A stretch of DNA of 64,000 bases, from assembly GCA_023957775.1 (NCBI GenBank), contig JAMLGR010000002.1, forward strand, positions 124,001 to 188,000, written 5' to 3'. The stretch is from Fimbriimonadaceae bacterium (GTDB lineage Bacteria > Armatimonadota > Fimbriimonadia > Fimbriimonadales > Fimbriimonadaceae). Below, piece after piece: positions 27,199 through 59,736 of the stretch. The first letter of the stretch is position 1. Each line of letters begins with the position of its first letter. Both the position numbers and the translations under genes were made by a program. The notes under the pieces were generated by a model that was not told the DNA's origin, ran no database searches, and saw only the letters and a list, made by a program, of their open reading frames with translations.

Positions 27199-27551
27199 TG
27201 GTGGAGGCGGCGAGAATTGAACTCGCTTCCAAAACCGTCGTCCAGCCGTTACCACGAGCGTCTCCCCTGTACTTTGTCTCGACGCCGCTCTCTGCCGGGG
27301 ATGCCTGAGCGGTCGTCCAGTTCGATTGTTCTAGGCGGGTTCGCTCCGAACAGAAGCTCGCCCGACGATCCGGATTTGTTTGACACCCCGACTTCGGCCT
27401 ACCGGCTCGGCCAAAGGGGACGCGCGGTCAATTAAGCCGCGTAAGCGTAGCTGTTATTCGCAGTTACTTTTTTTGCCGCTTTTTACGAGGCCAACGGCGC
27501 CTCGGCTCGCAACGAAAGGTTGATCCGGCTCTGTCGAACCCTGACGCCCCC
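27199..27551 (-). ncRNA. ssrA: Transfer-messenger RNA (tmRNA)
   Basis: One-piece tmRNA, 353 nt with encoded CCA. The acceptor stem GGGGGCG pairs with CGCCTCC with one G-U. GGGTTCGACAG near the 5' end and GCGAGTTCAATTCTCGC (T arm) near the 3' end are typical. The tag reading frame is at 27461-27432: GCG AAT AAC AGC TAC GCT TAC GCG GCT TAA, giving ANNSYAYAA, with GTAAC just before the resume codon. It rescues stalled ribosomes with SmpB and marks the product for ClpXP. The tag ends AYAA rather than the common ALAA or AVAA. Confidence 0.97.
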
Positions 27552-27616: not shown

Positions 27617-27724
27617 GGGGGAATCGGGAGACGGGAGTCGGGAGACGGGAATCGGGAATCGGGAATCGGGAGTCGGGAGACGGGAATCGGGAGACGGGTG
27701 GGAGACCGGAGATGGGAGTCGGAT
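27617..27724. repeat. Heptamer GGG-rich tandem repeat
   Basis: About 15 units of GGGAATC, GGGAGTC and GGGAGAC on the plus strand, period 7, with a few irregular units at the right end. Every unit starts with GGG, so four successive units could form a G-quadruplex with 4-nt loops. It lies between tmRNA and L25 and encodes nothing. Confidence 0.85.
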
Positions 27725-31700: not shown

Positions 31701-31911
31701 CTACGACGTGAAGACCGGCAAGTGGATCGCCGAGAACACGGGCGTGACGCCGGACATCGAGGTGGACGCACGCCCCGACCTCGTGGCCAAGGGACAGGAC
31801 CCGCAGCTTGCGAAGGCCGTGGAGTACCTGATGGAGCAACTCAAGAAAGGGTCGGTGAAGTACGTGGAGCCGAAAGGGTATCCGCGTGTCGGAGGCGGCG
31901 GCGGGAGCTAG
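28732..31911 (+). CDS. Tricorn-type serine protease
   Basis: A 1059-residue protein like archaeal and bacterial tricorn proteases, which degrade short peptides. The order is two beta-propellers (residues about 20-660, many SPDGKWLAF/WSPDG motifs), a C1 helical domain, a PDZ domain (about 760-850, INIKEGEYLLAIDG-like) and an S41-type catalytic end. S718-H719 in GTSHAYVGG correspond to the Ser-His of the active site, and S942 in GYAGSGGD to the nucleophile. A short hydrophobic N-terminus (LIQALTLALTVQFG) could be a signal peptide, so the enzyme may be periplasmic rather than cytosolic. A lysine/glutamate-rich insert lies near 540. It is the only large protease in the window. Confidence 0.9.
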   Translation: MLIQALTLALTVQFGTADMRLMRFPAVHGDTVVFTFAGDLWTSKKDGGFARRLTSHFGGESRARFSPDGKWLAFTGTYEGNADVYVMPAEGGEPVRLTFEPDTDIVLNWTPDGKIAYASTYGSFTNRQQRLWLVDPKGGLPISTDLIEVSDLSYSPDGRKAAYNRFGSHAFNWRRYRGGSQGKISFWDFPSQTYSEIPSAGENSWEPMWVGDTIYYISDKNQSTVNLYAYDTKSKRTEQLTKFTDADIKWPSTDGKTIVFERDGYLYDYDLASKKVERLTPTVRGDMLSARPELKELGNQISNFSLSPSGVRLAAEARGEIFSVPAKHGDTRDLTETPGAREQAPDWSPDGKTIAYMSDESGEVQIYTRPQMGGPATQVSDEKTNRIQAFRWSPKGDKISFSTVKGQVYLLDPKTKSSQEIFAERFGGTPPYDWSPDGNWIAYIANGENLFGALYLYEVATGTSHKVTEGYFPDQAVSFDLNGKYLYLISGRTFIPTPGDFEFIMQMENSQRVYLMTLSKDESNPLVPPSDEEKAGDDGKKEEGGNEKPEGMKVDLDGLAARVLPLPMPPGTYNAVVGANNGVYFFSDRTLQKFDLGSREASPIIAGASSLAFNAKRTKLAYQGGGVIGIIDARPGQKLGDGKVNVSGVEAVIDPRAEWRQIFWEAWRYERDHFYDAEMLGLNWDAIGKHYAELLPYVAHRNDLNYVIGLMIGELGTSHAYVGGGDMGDGPPPIPTGQLGADYESHANKIRFKKIYYGLNFDESRRGPLGEPGVNIKEGEYLLAIDGKPLGADTNPDSLLVNKAGKTVTLTVNDRPGMEGSREVRVHPIASEGQLRYIEWVEANRRWVSEATGGKVGYMHVPDTSMPGVIEFIKGYYSQSDKQAMIIDERFNGGGMIPTFFIERLGRQVATALKQRNGEDIKFPTQTFQGPMAMMINGYAGSGGDMFPWLFQNAKMGPLIGTRTWGGLVGIQGGAPLIDGGFLSSPEFGIYDVKTGKWIAENTGVTPDIEVDARPDLVAKGQDPQLAKAVEYLMEQLKKGSVKYVEPKGYPRVGGGGGS

Positions 31912-31915
31912 TCGT

Positions 31916-32023
31916 TAGGCCTTGGGCCTTGGGCCTTGGGCCTTGGGCCTTGGGCTTGGGGCTTGGGCTTGGGGCTTGGGGCTTGGGGCTTGGGCCTTGG
32001 GCTTGGGGCTTGGGGCTTGGGAG
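31916..32023. repeat. GGGCCTT/GGGGCTT heptamer array
   Basis: Over 100 nt of GGCCTTG and GGGCTTG units with period 6-7. It begins 5 nt after the tricorn stop and ends before the MATE-like gene. The same core, TTGGGCC, appears at 49077-49149 and 58117-58155. Potential G-quadruplex on the plus strand. Confidence 0.85.
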
Positions 32024-32102
32024 CCTGGTCAGGGGTATTCTTTGCTTGCCCTTGGCCGCTCCCACCGATCTTGCTGAGTCCGGCGCGAGCCCTCATCCAC
32101 CT

Positions 32103-33413
32103 TTGACGCAGAGTCTTGTCCTGCGCTTTTACCGGCCCCTTGCCTTGTCTTGGATGTTCATGGCCGTGGAAGGGCCGGTTTCGGTCGCTTTGATCGCACG
32201 GCGGCCCGACAGCCAGGTGAATACGGCGGCCTTCTTCGTCCTGATGAGCCTTGCTCTCTGGATCGAGAGCCCGGTGATCGACCTTCTCTCGACGGCGACG
32301 ACCCTCGCCAGGAACCGCCAACATTTCGTGGTCTTGACCCGCTTCGTGCAATGGGTCATCGCCGCAGTGACGTGCGTGCATTTCCTTTTGGCAGCCACGC
32401 CCCTGTACGGCTTCGTCACCCGCTCGATCCTCGACCTGCCCCCGGACGTGGCCGCGGCGGCCCACCTTGGGATGATCGTCATGATCCCGTGGAGCGGACT
32501 CATCGGATGGAGGCGGTACCTTCAGGGCGTCCTCATTCGCCACGGCCAGACGCGGCTCATCGGTTGGGGGACCGGCGTCCGCGTGGCCATGATGGCCACG
32601 GCCGCATGGATCCTGTTCCACGCGACGGAGTGGCCGGGGATTCCGATCGCGGCCACCTCCCTCCTTTGCGCGGTCGCCGCGGAAGCGCTGTTCATCCACC
32701 TGGTCAGTCGAAAGACCGTCGCCCAGTCGCTCGACCATCCCGAGCGGCCCGACGAGGCGCATCTCACGATGCAGAGGGTCGCCAAGTTCCACCTGCCTCT
32801 CACCGCCACCACGATGGTGATGCTGATGTCGGGATTGGTGATCAGCGCCGCACTGGCCCGTGCACCCAACTCGGTGCTCTCGCTGGCCGCGTGGCAGGTG
32901 GCGACGACGGTCCTCTTCCTCCACCGCACGATCGTGTTCGCCCTCCCGGAGGTGGTCGTCGCGCTCTACCGCGACTCGGCTTCCGCGGCCGTGCTGCGCC
33001 GGTTCTGCATCCACGTGGGCCTGGCAACCAGCGGTTCGATCGTGCTCTTCGCCGTGACGGGAGTGGACACCCTGTTCTTCGCCCGGGGATTGGGGAGCCA
33101 ACCCGAGACGGTGGCGACCGCGCACCTCGCCTACATGGTGGGCATGCTGATGCCGTTTCTCGGCGCGCTCCAATCCTACGTGCGCGGCATGCTGACGGCC
33201 CACCACCTGACCGTCGCGAGGCTTCATGCCGTGGTCGTGTCGATGGCGTGCCTGGTCGCGGGCTTGGCAGTCGGGGTCGGGCTTCGCTGGCCCGGCGTCG
33301 TCACGGCCGGCTTGGCGATGAGCTTCGCCATGGCGGCGGAGCTGTGGGCGCTGACGCGCAATTGGCGGCGGGGCCGGGCGCGCCTCGACGGGGCTTTGCC
33401 CGCCTCCGTCTGA
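32103..33413 (+). CDS. Multi-span membrane protein, MATE/flippase-like
   Basis: About 436 residues with roughly twelve hydrophobic segments and short loops. The block RFYRPLALSWMFMAVEGPVSVALI opens the first segment and the second half repeats the design (AKFHLPLTATTMVMLMSGLVISAALA), as expected for the MATE/MVF superfamily with internal pseudosymmetry. The start is uncertain: TTG 32103 keeps the first helix complete, ATG 32154 would cut it, and neither has a good Shine-Dalgarno sequence. The heptamer repeat array occupies the space before it. Substrate unknown; drug/organic cation or lipid-linked export are the possibilities for the fold. Confidence 0.65.
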   Translation: MTQSLVLRFYRPLALSWMFMAVEGPVSVALIARRPDSQVNTAAFFVLMSLALWIESPVIDLLSTATTLARNRQHFVVLTRFVQWVIAAVTCVHFLLAATPLYGFVTRSILDLPPDVAAAAHLGMIVMIPWSGLIGWRRYLQGVLIRHGQTRLIGWGTGVRVAMMATAAWILFHATEWPGIPIAATSLLCAVAAEALFIHLVSRKTVAQSLDHPERPDEAHLTMQRVAKFHLPLTATTMVMLMSGLVISAALARAPNSVLSLAAWQVATTVLFLHRTIVFALPEVVVALYRDSASAAVLRRFCIHVGLATSGSIVLFAVTGVDTLFFARGLGSQPETVATAHLAYMVGMLMPFLGALQSYVRGMLTAHHLTVARLHAVVVSMACLVAGLAVGVGLRWPGVVTAGLAMSFAMAAELWALTRNWRRGRARLDGALPASV

Positions 33414-47030: not shown

Positions 47031-47149
47031 GGTCTCTCCTTGGAGGGAAGTCTACACCGCGTGTGAGGTCAGGGCCGCCGGGCCCTCCAAAACGAACGCG
47101 GGCGAACCGAGAGTAATCAGGGGCCCGGCAACAGGGCCAGGGTGTGGGG

Positions 47150-49075
47150 ATGCGCTTCCAAAACTGGAGTCTCGGCAAGAAACTGACGGTCGGCTTCGGC
47201 GTGGTGATCACGCTGGGCTTCTTTGCGTTCATGGGCGCGGTCGGCGAGCTGTACGCCTACTCGGCTTCCATGAACGGCAAGATCGCGACGGTGCACGCGG
47301 CCGCGCTCACGAGCCAAGGCGTCCGGGCCGACGTGCTGCGAACCACCAACGACCTCACCCAGTTTGTCTACGGCGGCCAGAAGAGTTACCAAACGAGCTA
47401 CACCAAACTCGCCGAGCAGACCGATCGGCAGTTCGCCGCCGCCTCGAAGTCGATCCAGAACCTCGACCGATCGACAGACCTCAACTCCGAGTGGAGCGAC
47501 ACGCGCAGCCAGTGGTCCGCGGCCCAACCCATCGCGACGGAGATCTTCGCCCTGTCGGCCCGCGGCGAGAACTCGGAGGCGCGATCGGTCTTCGAAACGC
47601 GCTACCTGCCCCAACTGGACAAACTCGATGCACAGTTCGAGGCCTTTGGAGGTCTCTTGGCGCGCCACCGCACCGACCTCGTGGGGCGGAGCAACGCGGA
47701 GATGACGCACAGCATCTTCCTGGGTTGGCTGTTCCAGATCCTCGTCGTCATCGTCTCCTGCCTCACGGCATGGGCGATCACGCGGTGGCTGACCCGCTCG
47801 GTCAAAACCGCGCGCGCCGCGCTCGCTTCGCTGGCCGACGGCGATCTGCGTACCCGAATGGATGCCAGCATGGGCGACGAAATGGGAGCGATGGCCGAGA
47901 GTTTCAACCAAGGCACCCAAGCGCTTTCCCAGATGGTCGACCGGACGATGTCGGTCGCCCATGAGGTGTCCGAGCTCTCCTACCAACTCGTCTCGGCCGC
48001 GCGCGAGTCCAGCGACGTCGCCGAACAGGTGAGCCAACACGCCAACGCCGTGGCGGACAACGTGACCCAGGAGTACCGCTCGCTGACCGAGGCCGACGAG
48101 AGCCTCTCGCAGATCGCCTCCGCCGCCCACGAGGTGGCCATCGGCGCGGAACAGACAGCCACGTCCGCGGGCCGCGGATTCGAGCAGATCCAGTCCGTCT
48201 CCTCGGTGTCGAGCCGGTTGATGGAGAAGATCCAACGCGTCGACAACTCGGCCACGGAAGCCGCCGTGCTCTCCAACCGCACGAGCGAGGTGCTGCAGGG
48301 CGCGCGAGACGCGATGGCGTCGATTCGAGAGGAAACGACCCTGGCCGCCGACGAGGTCCGCTCGCTGTCCCAAATGTCCGAGACGATCGGGCGCATCGTG
48401 CGGACGATCGAGGACATCGCCGAACAGACCAACCTGCTCGCCTTGAACGCGGCGATCGAAGCCGCCCGGGCCGGAGAGCACGGCCGCGGATTCGCCGTCG
48501 TCGCCGAAGAGGTGCGCAAGCTCGCCGAACGAAGCGCGATCGCCACCAGCGAAATCCAAGACATCATCGGGCAGGCGCAAGAGCGCACGACCCGCGCCGC
48601 GCGCGTCGTCGAGCGCACGGGCGAATCCGTCGACACGGGCGCAGGCCAATGCCTCGAGGCGTTCGCCAGCGTGCGCCAGATTCTCGAATCCGTGCAGACG
48701 ATCGCCGGCGAAGCCAAGGACTCCGTGCAGGAGGCGCAACTGATCCGCAAGCTCATGGAGTCCGCCTTCGACGAGATGCAGCAGATCGCCTCCGTCGCGG
48801 AACAGAGCAGCGCAGCGTCCGAGCAGATGTCGGCCGCCACGTCGGAGACGCAGCGCGCGATGCGCTCGATCGTCGCCGTCGGCGAACGCAACGCGACGGC
48901 CGTGAGCGAGGTCGGGCAAAGCATCGCGAAGCAGTTGGAGAGGTTGCAGGAGCTCTCCGCCGGAAGCCTCAAGCTTCAGCTCGCGGCGCAGCAACTGGGC
49001 GAACTGCTCTCCGATTTCAAGATCGAGCGCCGGCAGCCAAGGGAAGGAAGCCCGGGCCTGCGCCTGGCGGCGTAA
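47150..49075 (+). CDS. Methyl-accepting chemotaxis protein
   Basis: A 641-residue transducer. One membrane span sits near the N-terminus ([21 protein letters not shown]), a periplasmic four-helix domain of about 150 residues follows, then a second span ([18 protein letters not shown]) and a HAMP domain. The cytoplasmic part ends in a long antiparallel coiled coil with the absolutely conserved hairpin tip [27 protein letters not shown] (CheA/CheW contact). Methylation regions flank it ([10 protein letters not shown] side and [13 protein letters not shown] side). The ligand is unknown. GTG 47144 or ATG 47150 are both possible. No cheA or cheW gene is in the window, so the signal complex is encoded elsewhere. 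Confidence 0.93.
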
Positions 49076-49076
49076 A

Positions 49077-49149
49077 TTGGGCCTTCGGCCTTGGGCCTTG
49101 GTGGGACCAGCCGACATCGAAGGCCCAAGGCCCAAAGCCCAAGGCCCAA
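49077..49149. terminator. Heptamer-repeat hairpin between convergent genes
   Basis: Left arm 49077-49099 (TTGGGCCTTCGGCCTTGGGCCTT) and right arm 49120-49149 made of AAGGCCC-type units pair over more than 20 bp around a loop of about 20 nt. It fills the whole space between the chemotaxis transducer and the ABC permease, whose stops face each other. No U tract, so it may be a folded bidirectional end or mRNA stabiliser. Confidence 0.6.
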
Positions 49150-52780: not shown

Positions 52781-54178
52781 ATGACTCTCGAGGCGCTGCT
52801 CGACACGCTGCGCGCGTGCCCGCTTGTGGCCTCGGTCCAAGCAAGCGAGGGCTCGCCGCTCGACGACCCCGCGACCCTCGCGCGGTTGGCCCGGGCGAGC
52901 GTGGCCGAGGGGGTCCGAATCCTCCGCCTGCAGGGCGTGGAGAACATCCGCGCGGCGCGCGGCGGACTGCCCTGCATCGGGCTGGTCAAGCAGCGGATCG
53001 AGGGTTCCGACGTCTTCATCACACCCACCTCGACCGAAGTCGACGCCCTCCTGGACGCCGGTGTCGACATCGTCGCCCTCGATGCAACCGCGAGGGTTCG
53101 ACCGGGAGGGGCCGCGCTGCCGGCGTTGGTGGAGCGCATCCACGAAGCCGGCGCGCTGGCGATGGGGGACTGCGACACGTTGGACTCGGTCCTCGAGGCC
53201 ATGGAGGCGGGGTGCGATCTGGTCGGAACGACCCTGTCCGGCTACACGGACGCCTCCCCTCCGCGGCCGGGACCAGACCTCGAACTCGTGCGCGAGGCCG
53301 CCGCCCGGAGCATTCCCGTCCTTGCCGAGGGTCGGGTCGCCGAACCTTGGCAGGCCGCCGCCGCGCTGCGCGCCGGGGCGATCGGCGTCGTGGTGGGGGG
53401 TGCGCTGAACGACCCGGTCAAGCAAACCCGCGCCTTTCTTCAGGCTTGCCGAACGACGGCGGGCCCCGTGGGCGCCGTCGACCTGGGAGGCACGTGGCTG
53501 CGCTTCGGGACCTTCGACGACAGGTGGCAGATGCAGGGTTCCGAGCGCATCGAGACGCCGGCGGACCCACAAGACAGGCTGGCCTGGATTCGAGCGCGGG
53601 CGCGCGAGTCCGGGGTGCGGGCATTGGGCATTGGAACCGGAGGCGTGGTGGACCCGGACACCGGCACGGTGTGGCGGTCCAAACCGCTCATCCCCGACCA
53701 CGAGGGCACCGTCCTCCGGTTCGATCTCCCCACGTACGCGTTGAACGACGGTCTGGCAACGGCCTGGGGCCATGCATGCCACCCCCTCTTCGCCGGCACG
53801 CGCGTCGCCACGATCGCGCTCGGCACGGGGGTGGGGTTCGGCATCGTGGAGCGCGGCCGGCTGCTGATGGGTGCGCGGGGCGAGCCCCCGCACCTCAACG
53901 ACGTGCCCACGCCCTGGGGGTCCTTTGAGAGCCTGCTCGGCGGCTATGCGCTGGGCGCTGACCCCTCGCCTGCCCAGATCGCGTCGGCGCGCGAAGCGGG
54001 CGTCGCCGCCATCCGCCTCGTGCACGGCCTGTTCCACCCCGACCACGTCGTGGTGTGCGGTGGAGTGGGTTTGGGTCTGGTGACCGGTCCCGACCCCGTG
54101 TTGGACGGGTTGCCGAGCCCCTTCGGCCAAGATGCCGGCTTGTACGGCGCGGCGGCGTTGGCACTGTGGCCGGGATAG
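52781..54178 (+). CDS. NanE-NanK fusion: ManNAc-6-P epimerase and ROK-family kinase
   Basis: A 465-residue bifunctional protein. Residues 1-225 are an N-acetylmannosamine-6-phosphate 2-epimerase (NanE): GLVKQ early, DVFITPTSTEVDALLDAGVDIVALDAT, AMGDCDTLDSVLEAMEAGCDLVGTTLSGYT, and VLAEGRVAEPWQAAAALRAGAIGVVVGGAL at the phosphate end. Residues about 230-465 are a ROK kinase of the NanK type (VGAVDLGGTWLRFG, IALGTGVGFGIVERG, VVCGGVGLGLV). NanK phosphorylates ManNAc, so the product feeds straight to the epimerase. The zinc ROK motif (CxCGxxGC) is not visible. This would serve sialic acid or ManNAc catabolism, though no nanA lyase or transporter gene is near. Confidence 0.88.
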   Translation: MTLEALLDTLRACPLVASVQASEGSPLDDPATLARLARASVAEGVRILRLQGVENIRAARGGLPCIGLVKQRIEGSDVFITPTSTEVDALLDAGVDIVALDATARVRPGGAALPALVERIHEAGALAMGDCDTLDSVLEAMEAGCDLVGTTLSGYTDASPPRPGPDLELVREAAARSIPVLAEGRVAEPWQAAAALRAGAIGVVVGGALNDPVKQTRAFLQACRTTAGPVGAVDLGGTWLRFGTFDDRWQMQGSERIETPADPQDRLAWIRARARESGVRALGIGTGGVVDPDTGTVWRSKPLIPDHEGTVLRFDLPTYALNDGLATAWGHACHPLFAGTRVATIALGTGVGFGIVERGRLLMGARGEPPHLNDVPTPWGSFESLLGGYALGADPSPAQIASAREAGVAAIRLVHGLFHPDHVVVCGGVGLGLVTGPDPVLDGLPSPFGQDAGLYGAAALALWPG

Positions 54179-54183
54179 GTTCG

Positions 54184-54213
54184 TGCTTTGTTCTTGGTCC
54201 TTGGTCCTTGGGG
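54184..54213. repeat. Short TTGGTCC heptamer array
   Basis: About four units, period 7 (TTGTTCT, TGGTCCT, TGGTCCT, TGGGGCG), between the fusion gene and glyS. The TGGTCCT core is related to the TTGGGCC core elsewhere. Confidence 0.6.
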
Positions 54214-56350: not shown

Positions 56351-56545
56351 GTGGAGGAGGGAAGCGAGCGCCTTGTGGGAGTGGGGGGGGGGGGGGGGGG
56401 GGCGGCGAGCTTGCTCGTCGCCTTGCCTTCGAGCGGCTTGCCGCGAGTCCAGGTGTGGAACCGGCGACAAGTCGCCGGTGAAGCGGCCGACCACCCCCCC
56501 CCCCCACTCCCAAGAGCGACGAGCAAGCTCGCGCACTCCCAAGGG
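56351..56545. repeat. Nested palindromic element with G20 and C12 runs
   Basis: A run of 20 G (56383-56402) is followed by GGCGAGCTTGCTCGTCGCC, itself a near palindrome. About 90 bp later comes a run of 12 C (56494-56505) followed by ACTCCCAAGAGCGACGAG. TGGGAGTG before the G run matches CACTCCCA after the C run, so the halves form an imperfect inverted repeat, and CACTCCCAAGG recurs once more. The middle holds a further palindrome CCGGCGACAAGTCGCCGG. No frame on either strand looks like a gene. It lies just after glyS. Confidence 0.7.
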
Positions 56546-56590: not shown

Positions 56591-57664
56591 GTGTCCGCCG
56601 AGGAGATTCTCGCCAAGTCCGATCGCTTCCTGAAGGAGGAGGTCCAACCCCGTGCCTGCGCCATCGATGCCGATCCCGACGCCCTGCGTTCGGCTCTTGA
56701 GGGGCTGTGCGACAGGGACCTGATGGCCCTACGCCGACCCATGGAGTTTGGGGGGCCTGCATTGGACGAGGACGCCTTTCGCCAGTTTCAGGAAACGGTG
56801 GCCCGGTACTCCGGATCGCTCGCTTTTCTCCAGACCCAACACCAGAGTGCGGGTTCGATGATCGCGAAGGGAGACAACCCGGAGCTGCGAGCCGAATATC
56901 TGCCGCAAATGGGGGATGGCCGCAAGCTCGTCGGCATCGGCTTCAGCCAGTTGCGGCGGCCGGGGCCGCCGATGATGCGCGCCGAATCGTGCGAGGGCGG
57001 GTACCGGCTGAACGGGGACGTGCCTTGGATCACCGGGTTCGGCCTCTATCCCGAGTTCCTCGTGGGAGCGACGCTGCCGGACGGTCGCGCGGTCTTCGCC
57101 GTGGTGCCGTTCGTGGACTCCCAGCGCCCAGGCGAGGCGATCACGTTCTCCGAACCGATGCGGCTCGCCGCCATGGAGTCGGCCCAAACCGTGTCGGGGA
57201 CGTTTGAGAACTGGTTCGTGCCGGACGCCCGAGTCGTGTTTCTCAAGCCTGCAGGTTGGATCAAGAACAACGACATGATCAACGTGACGCTGCAGGGCCA
57301 CTTTGCGCTCGGTTGCGCACGGGCGGGGCTCGACATCGTGGCCGCCGCCGCGGAGCGCAAGGGCTTGCCCTTCGTCCACGACGCGTGGACGAAGCTGGAC
57401 GCCGAGCTCGAGGCGTGCCGCAAGGCGACGGTCGATGCGCGCCAAGTCGGCGAGGAGACGACCGAGGAGCGCCTCAAGGTTCGCGCGTGGGCGATCGACC
57501 TCGCGGTGCGCTGCGCCCACGCGGGCGTGGCCGCAAGCAGCGGCGCCGCGAACAGCGCCGCCCACCCCGCGCAACGGGTGTACCGCGAGGCCCTCGTCTT
57601 CACCGTGAGCGCGCAGACCAGCGCGATCATGGAGGCGACGCTGGAGCGGCTGGCGAGGGAGTAG
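56591..57664 (+). CDS. Acyl-CoA dehydrogenase-like flavoprotein
   Basis: A 357-residue protein of the acyl-CoA dehydrogenase fold. Blocks in order are SRFLKEEVQPRA-like SDRFLKEEVQPRA (N-terminal helices), SLAFLQTQHQSAGSMIAKG, then the beta domain VGIGFSQLRRPGPPMMRAE with YRLNGDVPWITGFG, and MESAQTVSGTFENWFVPDARVV. The C-terminal helices are shorter than the family norm (about 380) and the canonical catalytic Glu region is not clear. It may be a monooxygenase-type relative (DszC/HpaA-like) rather than a true dehydrogenase. Start is GTG 56591. The palindromic element precedes it and a heptamer repeat follows. Confidence 0.75.
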   Translation: MSAEEILAKSDRFLKEEVQPRACAIDADPDALRSALEGLCDRDLMALRRPMEFGGPALDEDAFRQFQETVARYSGSLAFLQTQHQSAGSMIAKGDNPELRAEYLPQMGDGRKLVGIGFSQLRRPGPPMMRAESCEGGYRLNGDVPWITGFGLYPEFLVGATLPDGRAVFAVVPFVDSQRPGEAITFSEPMRLAAMESAQTVSGTFENWFVPDARVVFLKPAGWIKNNDMINVTLQGHFALGCARAGLDIVAAAAERKGLPFVHDAWTKLDAELEACRKATVDARQVGEETTEERLKVRAWAIDLAVRCAHAGVAASSGAANSAAHPAQRVYREALVFTVSAQTSAIMEATLERLARE

Positions 57665-57667
57665 CGA

Positions 57668-57698
57668 TTGGTCCTTTGTCCTTCGTCCTTCGTTTTTG
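57668..57698. repeat. GTCCTTT/GTCCTTC heptamer array
   Basis: Three to four 7-nt units followed by GTTTTTG, directly after the acyl-CoA dehydrogenase-like gene and before the convergent stop of the IVP-type gene. The T run could make it a weak terminator. Confidence 0.55.
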
Positions 57699-58083: not shown

Positions 58084-58116
58084 TACTTCTGCCCATTCGG
58101 TCCTCAGGACCGATCA

Positions 58117-58155
58117 CCCAAGGCCCAAGGCCCAAGGCCCAAGGCCGAAGGCCCG
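58117..58155. repeat. CCCAAGG heptamer array
   Basis: Five units of CCCAAGG-type sequence (last one CCGAAGG), period 7, on the plus strand; this is the reverse complement of the GGGCCTT units at 31916. It lies between divergent genes, where promoters are expected. Confidence 0.8.
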
Positions 58156-58179
58156 ATTCCATGCAAGTAACATCACCAT

Positions 58180-59091
58180 GTGGCAGGCCTTCCGCTTTCC
58201 GGCACGTTCCTCGACGAGATCACCCACGACATCCCCTCCCAAAACTGGGGGCGGGAGGATTGGGACCGGGAGTTCGGGCTGTACAAGCGCATCGGCATCG
58301 ACACGGTGATCCTGATTCGCGCGGGCTACCGAGACCGGTGTGTCTTCCCGGCCCGGTCCGTCCCTGGGCTGCTCCCCGTCTACGAGGACCTCGCCCGAAT
58401 GTTCCTCGACCTCGCCCACGCCCATGGACTCCGTCTCTTCTTCGGGCTGTTCGACTCGGGCGTCCACTGGGTCCGAGGCGATTGGCGCGAGGAGGTCGAA
58501 CTGAACCTGCGCTTCATTGAGGAGGTGGCCGCACGGTACGGGGGCCACGCGGCGTTCCAGGGGTGGTACCTGTGCCACGAAACCGGCAGGCGCGAGCCCT
58601 ACACCGAGGAGCTTTACAACCGGCTGGGCCACGCGTGCAAGCAGGCCGTGCCTCGTCCCGTCCTGATCTCGCCCTACCCCCAGGGAGCGAAGCAGCCCGG
58701 CGCCGCCCCCCTCCCTCTCGAGGAGTCTTTTCGCCAGTGGCACGACATCTTCGCCGAAACGCGCGGAGCGTTCGACATCTGCGCGTTTCAAGACGGCCAA
58801 CTGCACTATCGGGAGCTGCCCGAGTTCCAAGAGGGGATCGCCGAGCTGGGCCGGCGCCACGGAATCACCGTTTGGGCGAACGTCGAGACGTTCGATCGGG
58901 ACATGCCGATCAAGTTTCCCCCGGCGGACTGGCGCAACTTACGCTTGAAGCTGGAGTCCGCCTCGCAACGCGCCGAAAAACTGATCACGTTCGAGTTCGC
59001 GCACTTCCTTTCGCCCCACTCGTGCTACCCTTCGGCCCACAACCTCTTTCGGCGCTACGCGGAGCACTTTGGAATCCGAATCGAAACGTAG
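58180..59091 (+). CDS. DUF4434 TIM-barrel protein
   Basis: A 303-residue protein of the glycoside-hydrolase-like clan. LSGTFLDEITHDIPSQNW opens the first strand, IGIDTVILIRAGYRDRCVFPA the second, and LRLFFGLFDSG, FQGWYLCHE, RPVLISPYPQG, DICAFQDGQ and ITVWANVETFD follow as successive barrel strands. Acidic residues at strand ends (E in LCHE and NVETFD) are in the positions of catalytic or substrate-binding acids. No signal peptide is seen, so it is cytoplasmic or exported by an unusual route. GTG 58180 is used because the family sequence begins at once after it. The substrate is unknown. Confidence 0.8.
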   Translation: MAGLPLSGTFLDEITHDIPSQNWGREDWDREFGLYKRIGIDTVILIRAGYRDRCVFPARSVPGLLPVYEDLARMFLDLAHAHGLRLFFGLFDSGVHWVRGDWREEVELNLRFIEEVAARYGGHAAFQGWYLCHETGRREPYTEELYNRLGHACKQAVPRPVLISPYPQGAKQPGAAPLPLEESFRQWHDIFAETRGAFDICAFQDGQLHYRELPEFQEGIAELGRRHGITVWANVETFDRDMPIKFPPADWRNLRLKLESASQRAEKLITFEFAHFLSPHSCYPSAHNLFRRYAEHFGIRIET

Positions 59092-59171: not shown

Positions 59172-59630
59172 ATGCGATTTCGAACCCAACCCATGCTGGC
59201 CGCGGCCGTTGCCGTGGCCGCGCTTGCCGTTCCGCTGACGATTCAGACCGTGGGCGCCCAAGATGCGCCTCCAAATCCGCCCGGACAAGGCGGAGCGATC
59301 GCCGGCCCGCGCGGCGGGCAGCGTCCCGGCCAATTCCCAGGACAACCTGGGCAGTTCCCAGGGCAACCCGGACAGCCGGGCCAGCCAGGGCAGTTCCCCG
59401 GAATGGCCATGATGATGGGAGGGGGAAGCCCGACCATGGTGGTCGACGGCCAGTTCCTCTACATCCTGCGGGGCAACCAGTTGCTCAAAGTCCAAAAGGA
59501 GACCCTCAAGGTCGTTGCCCAAGGCGAACTCCCCATGCCCGAGATGCGGGGCCCGGGCGCCCCGGGAGCCGTCGGCCGCGAGCAGCTTCGACGCGGCGGC
59601 GGCGGCAACCCGCCTCCCCCGAGCGAGTAG
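59172..59630 (+). CDS. Exported Pro-Gly-Gln-repeat protein
   Basis: A 152-residue secreted protein (signal LAAAVAVAALAVPLTIQTVGAQD). The middle carries PGQFPGQPGQFPGQPGQPGQ-type repeats in which each unit is 3-6 residues, an unstructured linker. The second half (SPTMVVDGQFLYILRGNQLLKVQKETLKVVAQGELP) reads as one beta-propeller-like blade or a small beta domain. The tail is RRGGGGNPPPPSE. CGGAGG before the ATG supports the start at 59172. The 3' end is duplicated after the stop codon (see the repeat). No named family is recognised. Confidence 0.65.
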   Translation: MRFRTQPMLAAAVAVAALAVPLTIQTVGAQDAPPNPPGQGGAIAGPRGGQRPGQFPGQPGQFPGQPGQPGQPGQFPGMAMMMGGGSPTMVVDGQFLYILRGNQLLKVQKETLKVVAQGELPMPEMRGPGAPGAVGREQLRRGGGGNPPPPSE

Positions 59631-59736
59631 GATCACGCCCGTCTAGCGGGCGTGGCACCCTTAGAGCGACGCGGCGGCGGCAACCCGCCTCCCCCGAGCA
59701 AGTAGGTTCCACGCCCGTCTAGCGGGCGTGGCACCC
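59589..59736. repeat. Direct repeat of gene tail plus REP-like palindrome
   Basis: Copy 1 (59589-59660) is the last 42 nt of the preceding gene, its stop codon, and the palindrome CACGCCC-G-TCTA-GCGGGCGTGG followed by CACCC. Copy 2 (59667-59736) repeats both, with one GGC fewer and AAG for GAG before the stop. The palindrome matches those at 27741-27803. The rest of the gap to 59809 holds nothing recognisable. Confidence 0.8.

What the first reader, a model, noticed from the sequence alone, without database searches (positions are those of the whole stretch)
31916..32023. Heptamer GGGCCTT/GGGGCTT array directly after the tricorn gene
Seen: more than 100 nt of period 6-7 repeats with GGG in each unit. 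A G-quadruplex could form on the plus strand. The unit core TTGGGCC recurs, in either orientation, at 49077-49149 and 58117-58155. Inference: a genome-wide intergenic heptamer family comparable in style to the long tandem heptamers of cyanobacteria, possibly spreading by slippage or transposition.
Basis: partly seen in the sequence, partly recalled or inferred. Interest (0 to 1): 0.6.

Follow-up and report, generated by a model that had tools for sequence, protein, structure and literature searches.

The report
Seven-base repeat arrays between genes
This bacterium (phylum Armatimonadota) has dozens of short stretches between its genes in which a seven-letter DNA word is repeated head to tail; such repeats are known from a few other bacteria, but here the words differ between related species while the length of seven stays fixed, which makes the old question of how they arise easier to test.

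Summary
The array is real: 15.3 copies of GGGCCTT/GGGGCTT begin at the tricorn-protease stop codon. It belongs to a genome-wide set. In 1.26 Mb sampled I found 87 period-7 arrays; in the first 863 kb period 7 gives 62 segments and no non-multiple period more than 8. There are about six word families; the commonest is GGGAATC, the word already described in Xanthomonas (Rehm 2015). Relatives hold period-7 arrays with other words (GGGACAA, GGGCGTT, ATCNNNN), and presence is patchy within genera. The G/T-rich strand usually reads outward from the nearest gene edge (40:13, retested on new stretches 26:7). Opposed neighbours are G-then-C (7:0). GGGAATC units vary at two positions only, unlike a uniform-mutation simulation. 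35 of 87 arrays lack a G-quadruplex motif, so quadruplexes cannot define the class. MutS carries in-frame heptamer arrays in the same loop in three genomes. Best reading: a known kind of heptameric repeat, spread recently in this lineage and grown by slippage or unequal exchange; seeding and orientation stay unexplained. Transposition, a shared reverse transcriptase, Ku and mismatch-repair loss found no support.

The parts
31909..32021 (+). Focal heptamer array (TTGGGCC / TTGGGC / TTGGGGC), G-rich strand = sense strand of the gene before it
   Evidence: TRF 31918-32021; lag-7 segment from the stop codon
28732..31911 (+). Tricorn-type protease gene, 1059 aa, whose stop codon TAG opens the array
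   Evidence: translation; Pfam PDZ_Tricorn, Tricorn_C1, Peptidase_S41, PD40
32154..33413 (+). Next predicted gene on the same strand, 419 aa, no Pfam match
   Evidence: own gene finder
27619..27722 (+). GGGAATC/GGGAGTC/GGGAGAC array, upstream of the minus-strand tmRNA gene (27199-27551)
   Evidence: TRF; sequence; tmRNA RF00023
49077..49101 (+). First arm of a G-then-C inverted heptamer pair, one base after the stop of an MCP-type gene
   Evidence: TRF, sequence, Pfam, fold z -4.7
49120..49149 (-). Second arm of the inverted pair, six bases from the stop of the converging ABC-2-type gene
   Evidence: TRF
54180..54211 (+). TCCTTGG-type array directly after the stop of the NanE/ROK-type gene 52781-54178
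57668..57693 (+). TCCTTNG-type array three bases after the stop of gene 56591-57664
58117..58154 (-). GGGCCTT array on the antisense strand, 25 bases upstream of the start of the DUF4434 gene 58180-59091
   Evidence: TRF

Best explanation
The array is one of a genome-wide set of period-7 tandem repeats of the same kind as the GGGAATC repeats of Xanthomonas and the heptamers of cyanobacteria. Shown here: period 7 is strongly preferred whatever the word; arrays sit at gene edges and tend to read G/T-rich outward; arrays of one family share one small set of unit variants; presence is patchy among close relatives. Inferred: short heptamer seeds from a common pool of units were copied to many intergenic sites (and a few tolerant protein loops) in a recent burst in this lineage, and each array then grew and shrank by replication slippage or unequal exchange of one or several units, with selection removing arrays that damage genes. 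In this reading the array after the tricorn gene has no dedicated function; its possible G-quadruplex and its possible effect on transcription are by-products.
For: Period spectrum in the first 863 kb of the own genome: 62 segments at period 7 against at most 8 at any period that is not a multiple of 7; same in G016, 28 against at most 5. The focal array is built of 27-base blocks, and neighbouring units resemble each other more than expected (147 identical neighbours against 117), as slippage or block duplication predicts. About six word families serve 87 arrays. Outside arrays there is no lag-7 signal and no outward skew, so arrays are discrete and not old decayed remains. Patchy presence inside genera: G091 98 matches, G010 0; G104 81, six of its seven congeners 0. 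Tricorn orthologues that could be read have other sequence, often a terminator-like hairpin, where this genome has the array. In mutS, array-free relatives show the short loop.
Against: Plain slippage with random mutation should spread variation over all seven positions, but GGGAATC units vary 42% and 30% at positions 5 and 6 and at most 2.3% elsewhere (uniform simulation 9-10% everywhere). Slippage alone does not explain the outward orientation (26:7 on new stretches) or the G-then-C order of opposed neighbours (7:0). No excess of shared multi-unit strings between loci, so the copying step is not directly seen.
Confidence: 0.5

Rival explanations
1. The arrays are functional gene-edge elements: a protein or RNA factor reads the fixed core of the unit at seven-base steps, or the C/A-rich strand that faces each gene acts as a Rho-loading stretch that stops transcription from entering the gene from either side.
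For: Outward orientation at both gene ends; fixed core with two free positions; gene ends with an array rarely have an intrinsic terminator (2 of 70 against 75 of 631 in G000 and G016 together, p 0.024); inverted pairs can fold strongly.
Against: Most gene edges have no array; close relatives live without them; three of the seven opposed pairs join different or only partly matching words and could not form good hairpins; the terminator difference may only reflect space taken by the array; outward bias is not significant in GGGC[C/G]TT loci of other phyla (26:17). Rho loading was not tested at all.
Confidence: 0.2
2. The arrays exist because they form G-quadruplexes that regulate the neighbouring genes, as considered for GGGNATC repeats.
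For: 52 of 87 arrays contain a canonical G-quadruplex motif; GGGAATC oligonucleotides form quadruplexes in vitro (Rehm 2015, PMC4692102).
Against: 35 of 87 arrays have no such motif; G016 has abundant period-7 arrays without G-tracts such as ATCNNNN; in GGGAATC units the loop bases A4 and C7 are nearly as fixed as the G-tract, which a quadruplex does not need.
Confidence: 0.1
3. The units are laid down by templated synthesis, as telomerase does: an enzyme with a short RNA template adds heptamers to 3' ends at breaks, so both sides of a break gain G-rich strands pointing at each other.
For: Predicts exactly the G-then-C order (7:0), also seen by eye in the mutS loops of G016, G012 and G061 away from gene edges, and a fixed core with limited variation. 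A bacterial reverse transcriptase that makes tandem-repeat DNA, DRT10, has been reported (PMC12632851).
Against: The reverse transcriptases found in G000, G006 and G016 look like different classes by eye, and G012 has none; Ku is not linked to arrays (6 of 14 array-rich, 19 of 71 others, p 0.33); one genome uses about six words; the focal array shows block duplications. Any-type RT presence is weakly associated (3 of 5 against 4 of 32, p 0.04), not corrected for kinship.
Confidence: 0.1
4. The arrays spread as a mobile element or by copying long blocks between loci.
For: Same words at many loci in one species and not in congeners.
Against: Pairs of loci share no more 4- to 6-unit strings than order-1 shuffles; no element around the arrays was seen.
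Confidence: 0.07

Closest known systems
GGGNATC-type G-rich heptamer repeats of Xanthomonas (GGGAATC) and Nostoc (GGGGA(T/C)T), Rehm et al. 2015, PMC4692102
   Same: Period 7; identical word GGGAATC in this genome's commonest family; genome-wide, mostly intergenic; G-rich strand on the sense side after stop codons and on the antisense side before starts; convergent inverted pairs
   Different: Here several unrelated words coexist, including GGGCCTT and words without GGG; relatives use quite different words; two variable positions per unit; arrays inside mutS
Cyanobacterial STRR/LTRR heptamers (Calothrix, Anabaena)
   Same: Several heptamer families in one genome (from Rehm 2015's citation and own knowledge)
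   Different: Different words; not compared at sequence level here
TAACTGA direct repeats of Beggiatoaceae, PMC4679880
   Same: Period 7, intergenic, at gene edges, length changes in 7-base steps between strains
   Different: One word only, mostly just upstream of start codons

Membership tests
[quoted passage not shown]
[quoted passage not shown]
   7 array runs inside ORFs against 86 outside
[quoted passage not shown]
   Met by the GGGAATC family in this genome; not met by the focal GGGCCTT/GGGGCTT array
[quoted passage not shown] convergent pairs | tested here: met
   A tendency, not absolute:
[quoted passage not shown]
   Motif present in the focal array and 52 of 87 arrays; no biophysics
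Cyanobacterial STRR/LTRR | Heptamer or longer tandem repeats in cyanobacteria | tested here: not met
   The host's family contains Armatimonadetes bacterium 55-13, Armatimonadota; works alike, not a member
Telomere-like repeats made by a reverse transcriptase | A reverse transcriptase and template RNA shared by array-rich genomes | tested here: not met
   No shared RT class among the array-rich genomes read; template RNA not searched
Mobile element | Transposase, conserved ends or long shared blocks | tested here: not met
   No excess block sharing; transposases next to arrays were not sought systematically

The most novel reading that the evidence does not exclude
A trans-acting process that copies a short unit with a fixed core and two free positions onto outward-facing 3' ends lays down these heptamers, so that a bacterium has a telomere-like repeat-adding activity that works inside its chromosome; the word is set by each species and the step of seven by the machinery. 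In mutS the arrays would then double as length-variable switches of mismatch repair.
Probability: 0.1. Interest if true: 0.9.

Novelty: new variant of a known kind. Interest (0 to 1): 0.5.

Why it matters
Why bacterial genomes favour repeats of exactly seven bases has been open since heptamers were noticed to be over-represented. This family offers species with and without arrays, with unrelated words but the same period, so that period, word and quadruplex can be separated. Arrays in the mutS loop, where a one-unit change would shift the frame, would be a testable route to switching mismatch repair on and off.

Tried and rejected
Minus-strand ORFs through the arrays (31908-33227, 47117-49117, 58114-58860) were first called as genes; their translations look like shadow frames and a better gene model dropped them. 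Mismatch-repair loss: MutS in all 61 genomes. Shared reverse transcriptase: none (the PADLOC one search failed on coordinates). Ku: no link. Recent block transposition: no excess sharing. General skew of gene edges: none. Pair order in G016: not readable, because its words have no strand skew. The outward rule in 120 loci of other phyla was weak and rests on crude gene calls.

Full report
What is there. The stretch 31909-32021 is an imperfect heptamer array that starts at the stop codon TAG of a tricorn-type protease gene (Pfam PDZ_Tricorn, Tricorn_C1, Peptidase_S41) and ends 132 bases before the next gene on the same strand. Units are TTGGGCC, TTGGGC and TTGGGGC; a 27-base block of four units is itself repeated. 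Six further pieces of the same kind lie in the window, including a GGGAATC-family array at 27619-27722 upstream of tmRNA and an inverted pair that fills the gap between two converging genes.

Genome-wide picture. The window lies in a 3.5-Mb draft genome; a member of the same family is identical over 2.5 kb to Armatimonadetes bacterium 55-13, so the host is an Armatimonadota bacterium (Fimbriimonadaceae from my own knowledge, not tested). The pattern TTGGGCCTTGGGCC occurs 134 times against 1 for the reversed control, and five GGG units at period 7 occur 495 times (the reversed control is uninformative for that symmetric pattern). In 863 kb read base by base, period 7 gives 62 segments and no non-multiple period more than 8. 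With a further 400 kb the sample holds 87 arrays. Word families are GGGANNC, GGGCCTT, GGTTTGT, GTCGTTT, GTCCTTN and GGYGTGA, and some arrays change word while keeping phase.

Position and direction. In the first sample, taking the nearest gene edge, the G/T-rich strand read outward in 40 cases and inward in 13; on new stretches fetched afterwards it was 26 to 7 (p 0.0013). The 5' end of the G strand is a median 16 bases from a gene edge, the 3' end 103. Adjacent arrays of opposite direction are G-then-C in 7 of 7 cases, p 0.016, three of them with different or only partly matching words in the two arms. Rehm et al. report the same placement and convergent pairs in Xanthomonas. Outside arrays, gene edges show no such skew. 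Stops next to arrays are TAG more often than elsewhere (30 of 49 against 426 of 1031, p 0.007). Genes often carry a GGTANNNT element 14-19 bases before the start codon, and 14 of 37 start-side arrays end before a -10-like element.

Unit structure. In 214 GGGAATC-family units from 27 arrays, mismatches are 42% and 30% at positions 5 and 6 and at most 2.3% at the others; in G016, ATC is fixed and other positions vary. Simulated uniform substitution passed through the same pipeline gives 9-10% at every position, never above 16.5%. Loci share the same few variants, yet not the same multi-unit strings. This is the observation that plain slippage explains least.

Relatives. Six-unit GGG arrays occur in 29 of 85 genomes of the family and six-unit ATC arrays in 9. 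The species listed have their own words, and rich and empty species sit in one genus. Sampled stretches of relatives poor in such arrays show no period-7 excess. Readable tricorn orthologues lack the array, several with a terminator-like hairpin there (about half of the loci were not resolved by the script).

mutS. In this genome an in-frame GGGAATC-family array lies between FVPNDTNL and RVMILTGPNMSGK of MutS. G016 and G012 have longer in-frame arrays in their own words in the same loop, and G061 an 8-base inverted pair; lag-7 (or lag-8) similarity was not reached by any of 500 shuffles. Other relatives read have short loops. The loop is tolerant of length change, so tolerance may be the whole story; inheritance, repeated insertion and a function cannot be told apart.

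Mechanism. Shown: period preference, gene-edge placement, outward tendency, shared unit variants, patchy presence. Inferred: seeding from a common pool, later slippage or unequal exchange, purging from genes. MutS loss, Ku, a common reverse transcriptase and block transposition were tested and found wanting. G-quadruplex formation may occur but cannot be the reason for the class.

Known or new. The kind is known (Rehm 2015, PMC4692102; the Beggiatoaceae TAACTGA repeats, PMC4679880; cyanobacterial heptamers). New here, as far as the papers searched show, are the Armatimonadota members, the turnover of words at constant period within one family, the two-position variation and the mutS arrays.

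Noticed in passing
G000 C4:77152-77207; G016 L299; G012 L300; G061 L302: In-frame heptamer (or 8-mer) arrays in the same loop of MutS just before the Walker A strand in four genomes; a one-unit change would shift the frame.
   Followed up: partly
window 23075, 27738, 27789, 59647, 59723: REP-like palindromes with GTGCCACGCCCG...CGGGCGTGGCAC; 67 copies of the 12-mer in 1.26 Mb against 2 for the reversed control.
   Followed up: partly
window 59596-59736: A 75-base unit repeated 1.9 times that contains the REP-like palindrome.
   Followed up: no
G000, 580 genes with upstream gaps (also window): GGTANNNT peaks 14-19 bases before start codons, which suggests leaderless transcripts.
   Followed up: no
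window 56383-56402: A run of 20 G in a 65% G+C genome.
   Followed up: no
L031-L150 (genome contigs): GGGC[C/G]TT arrays of five or more units occur in Limnohabitans, Vicinamibacteraceae, Synergistaceae, Paracoccus, Glycomyces and many others.
   Followed up: partly
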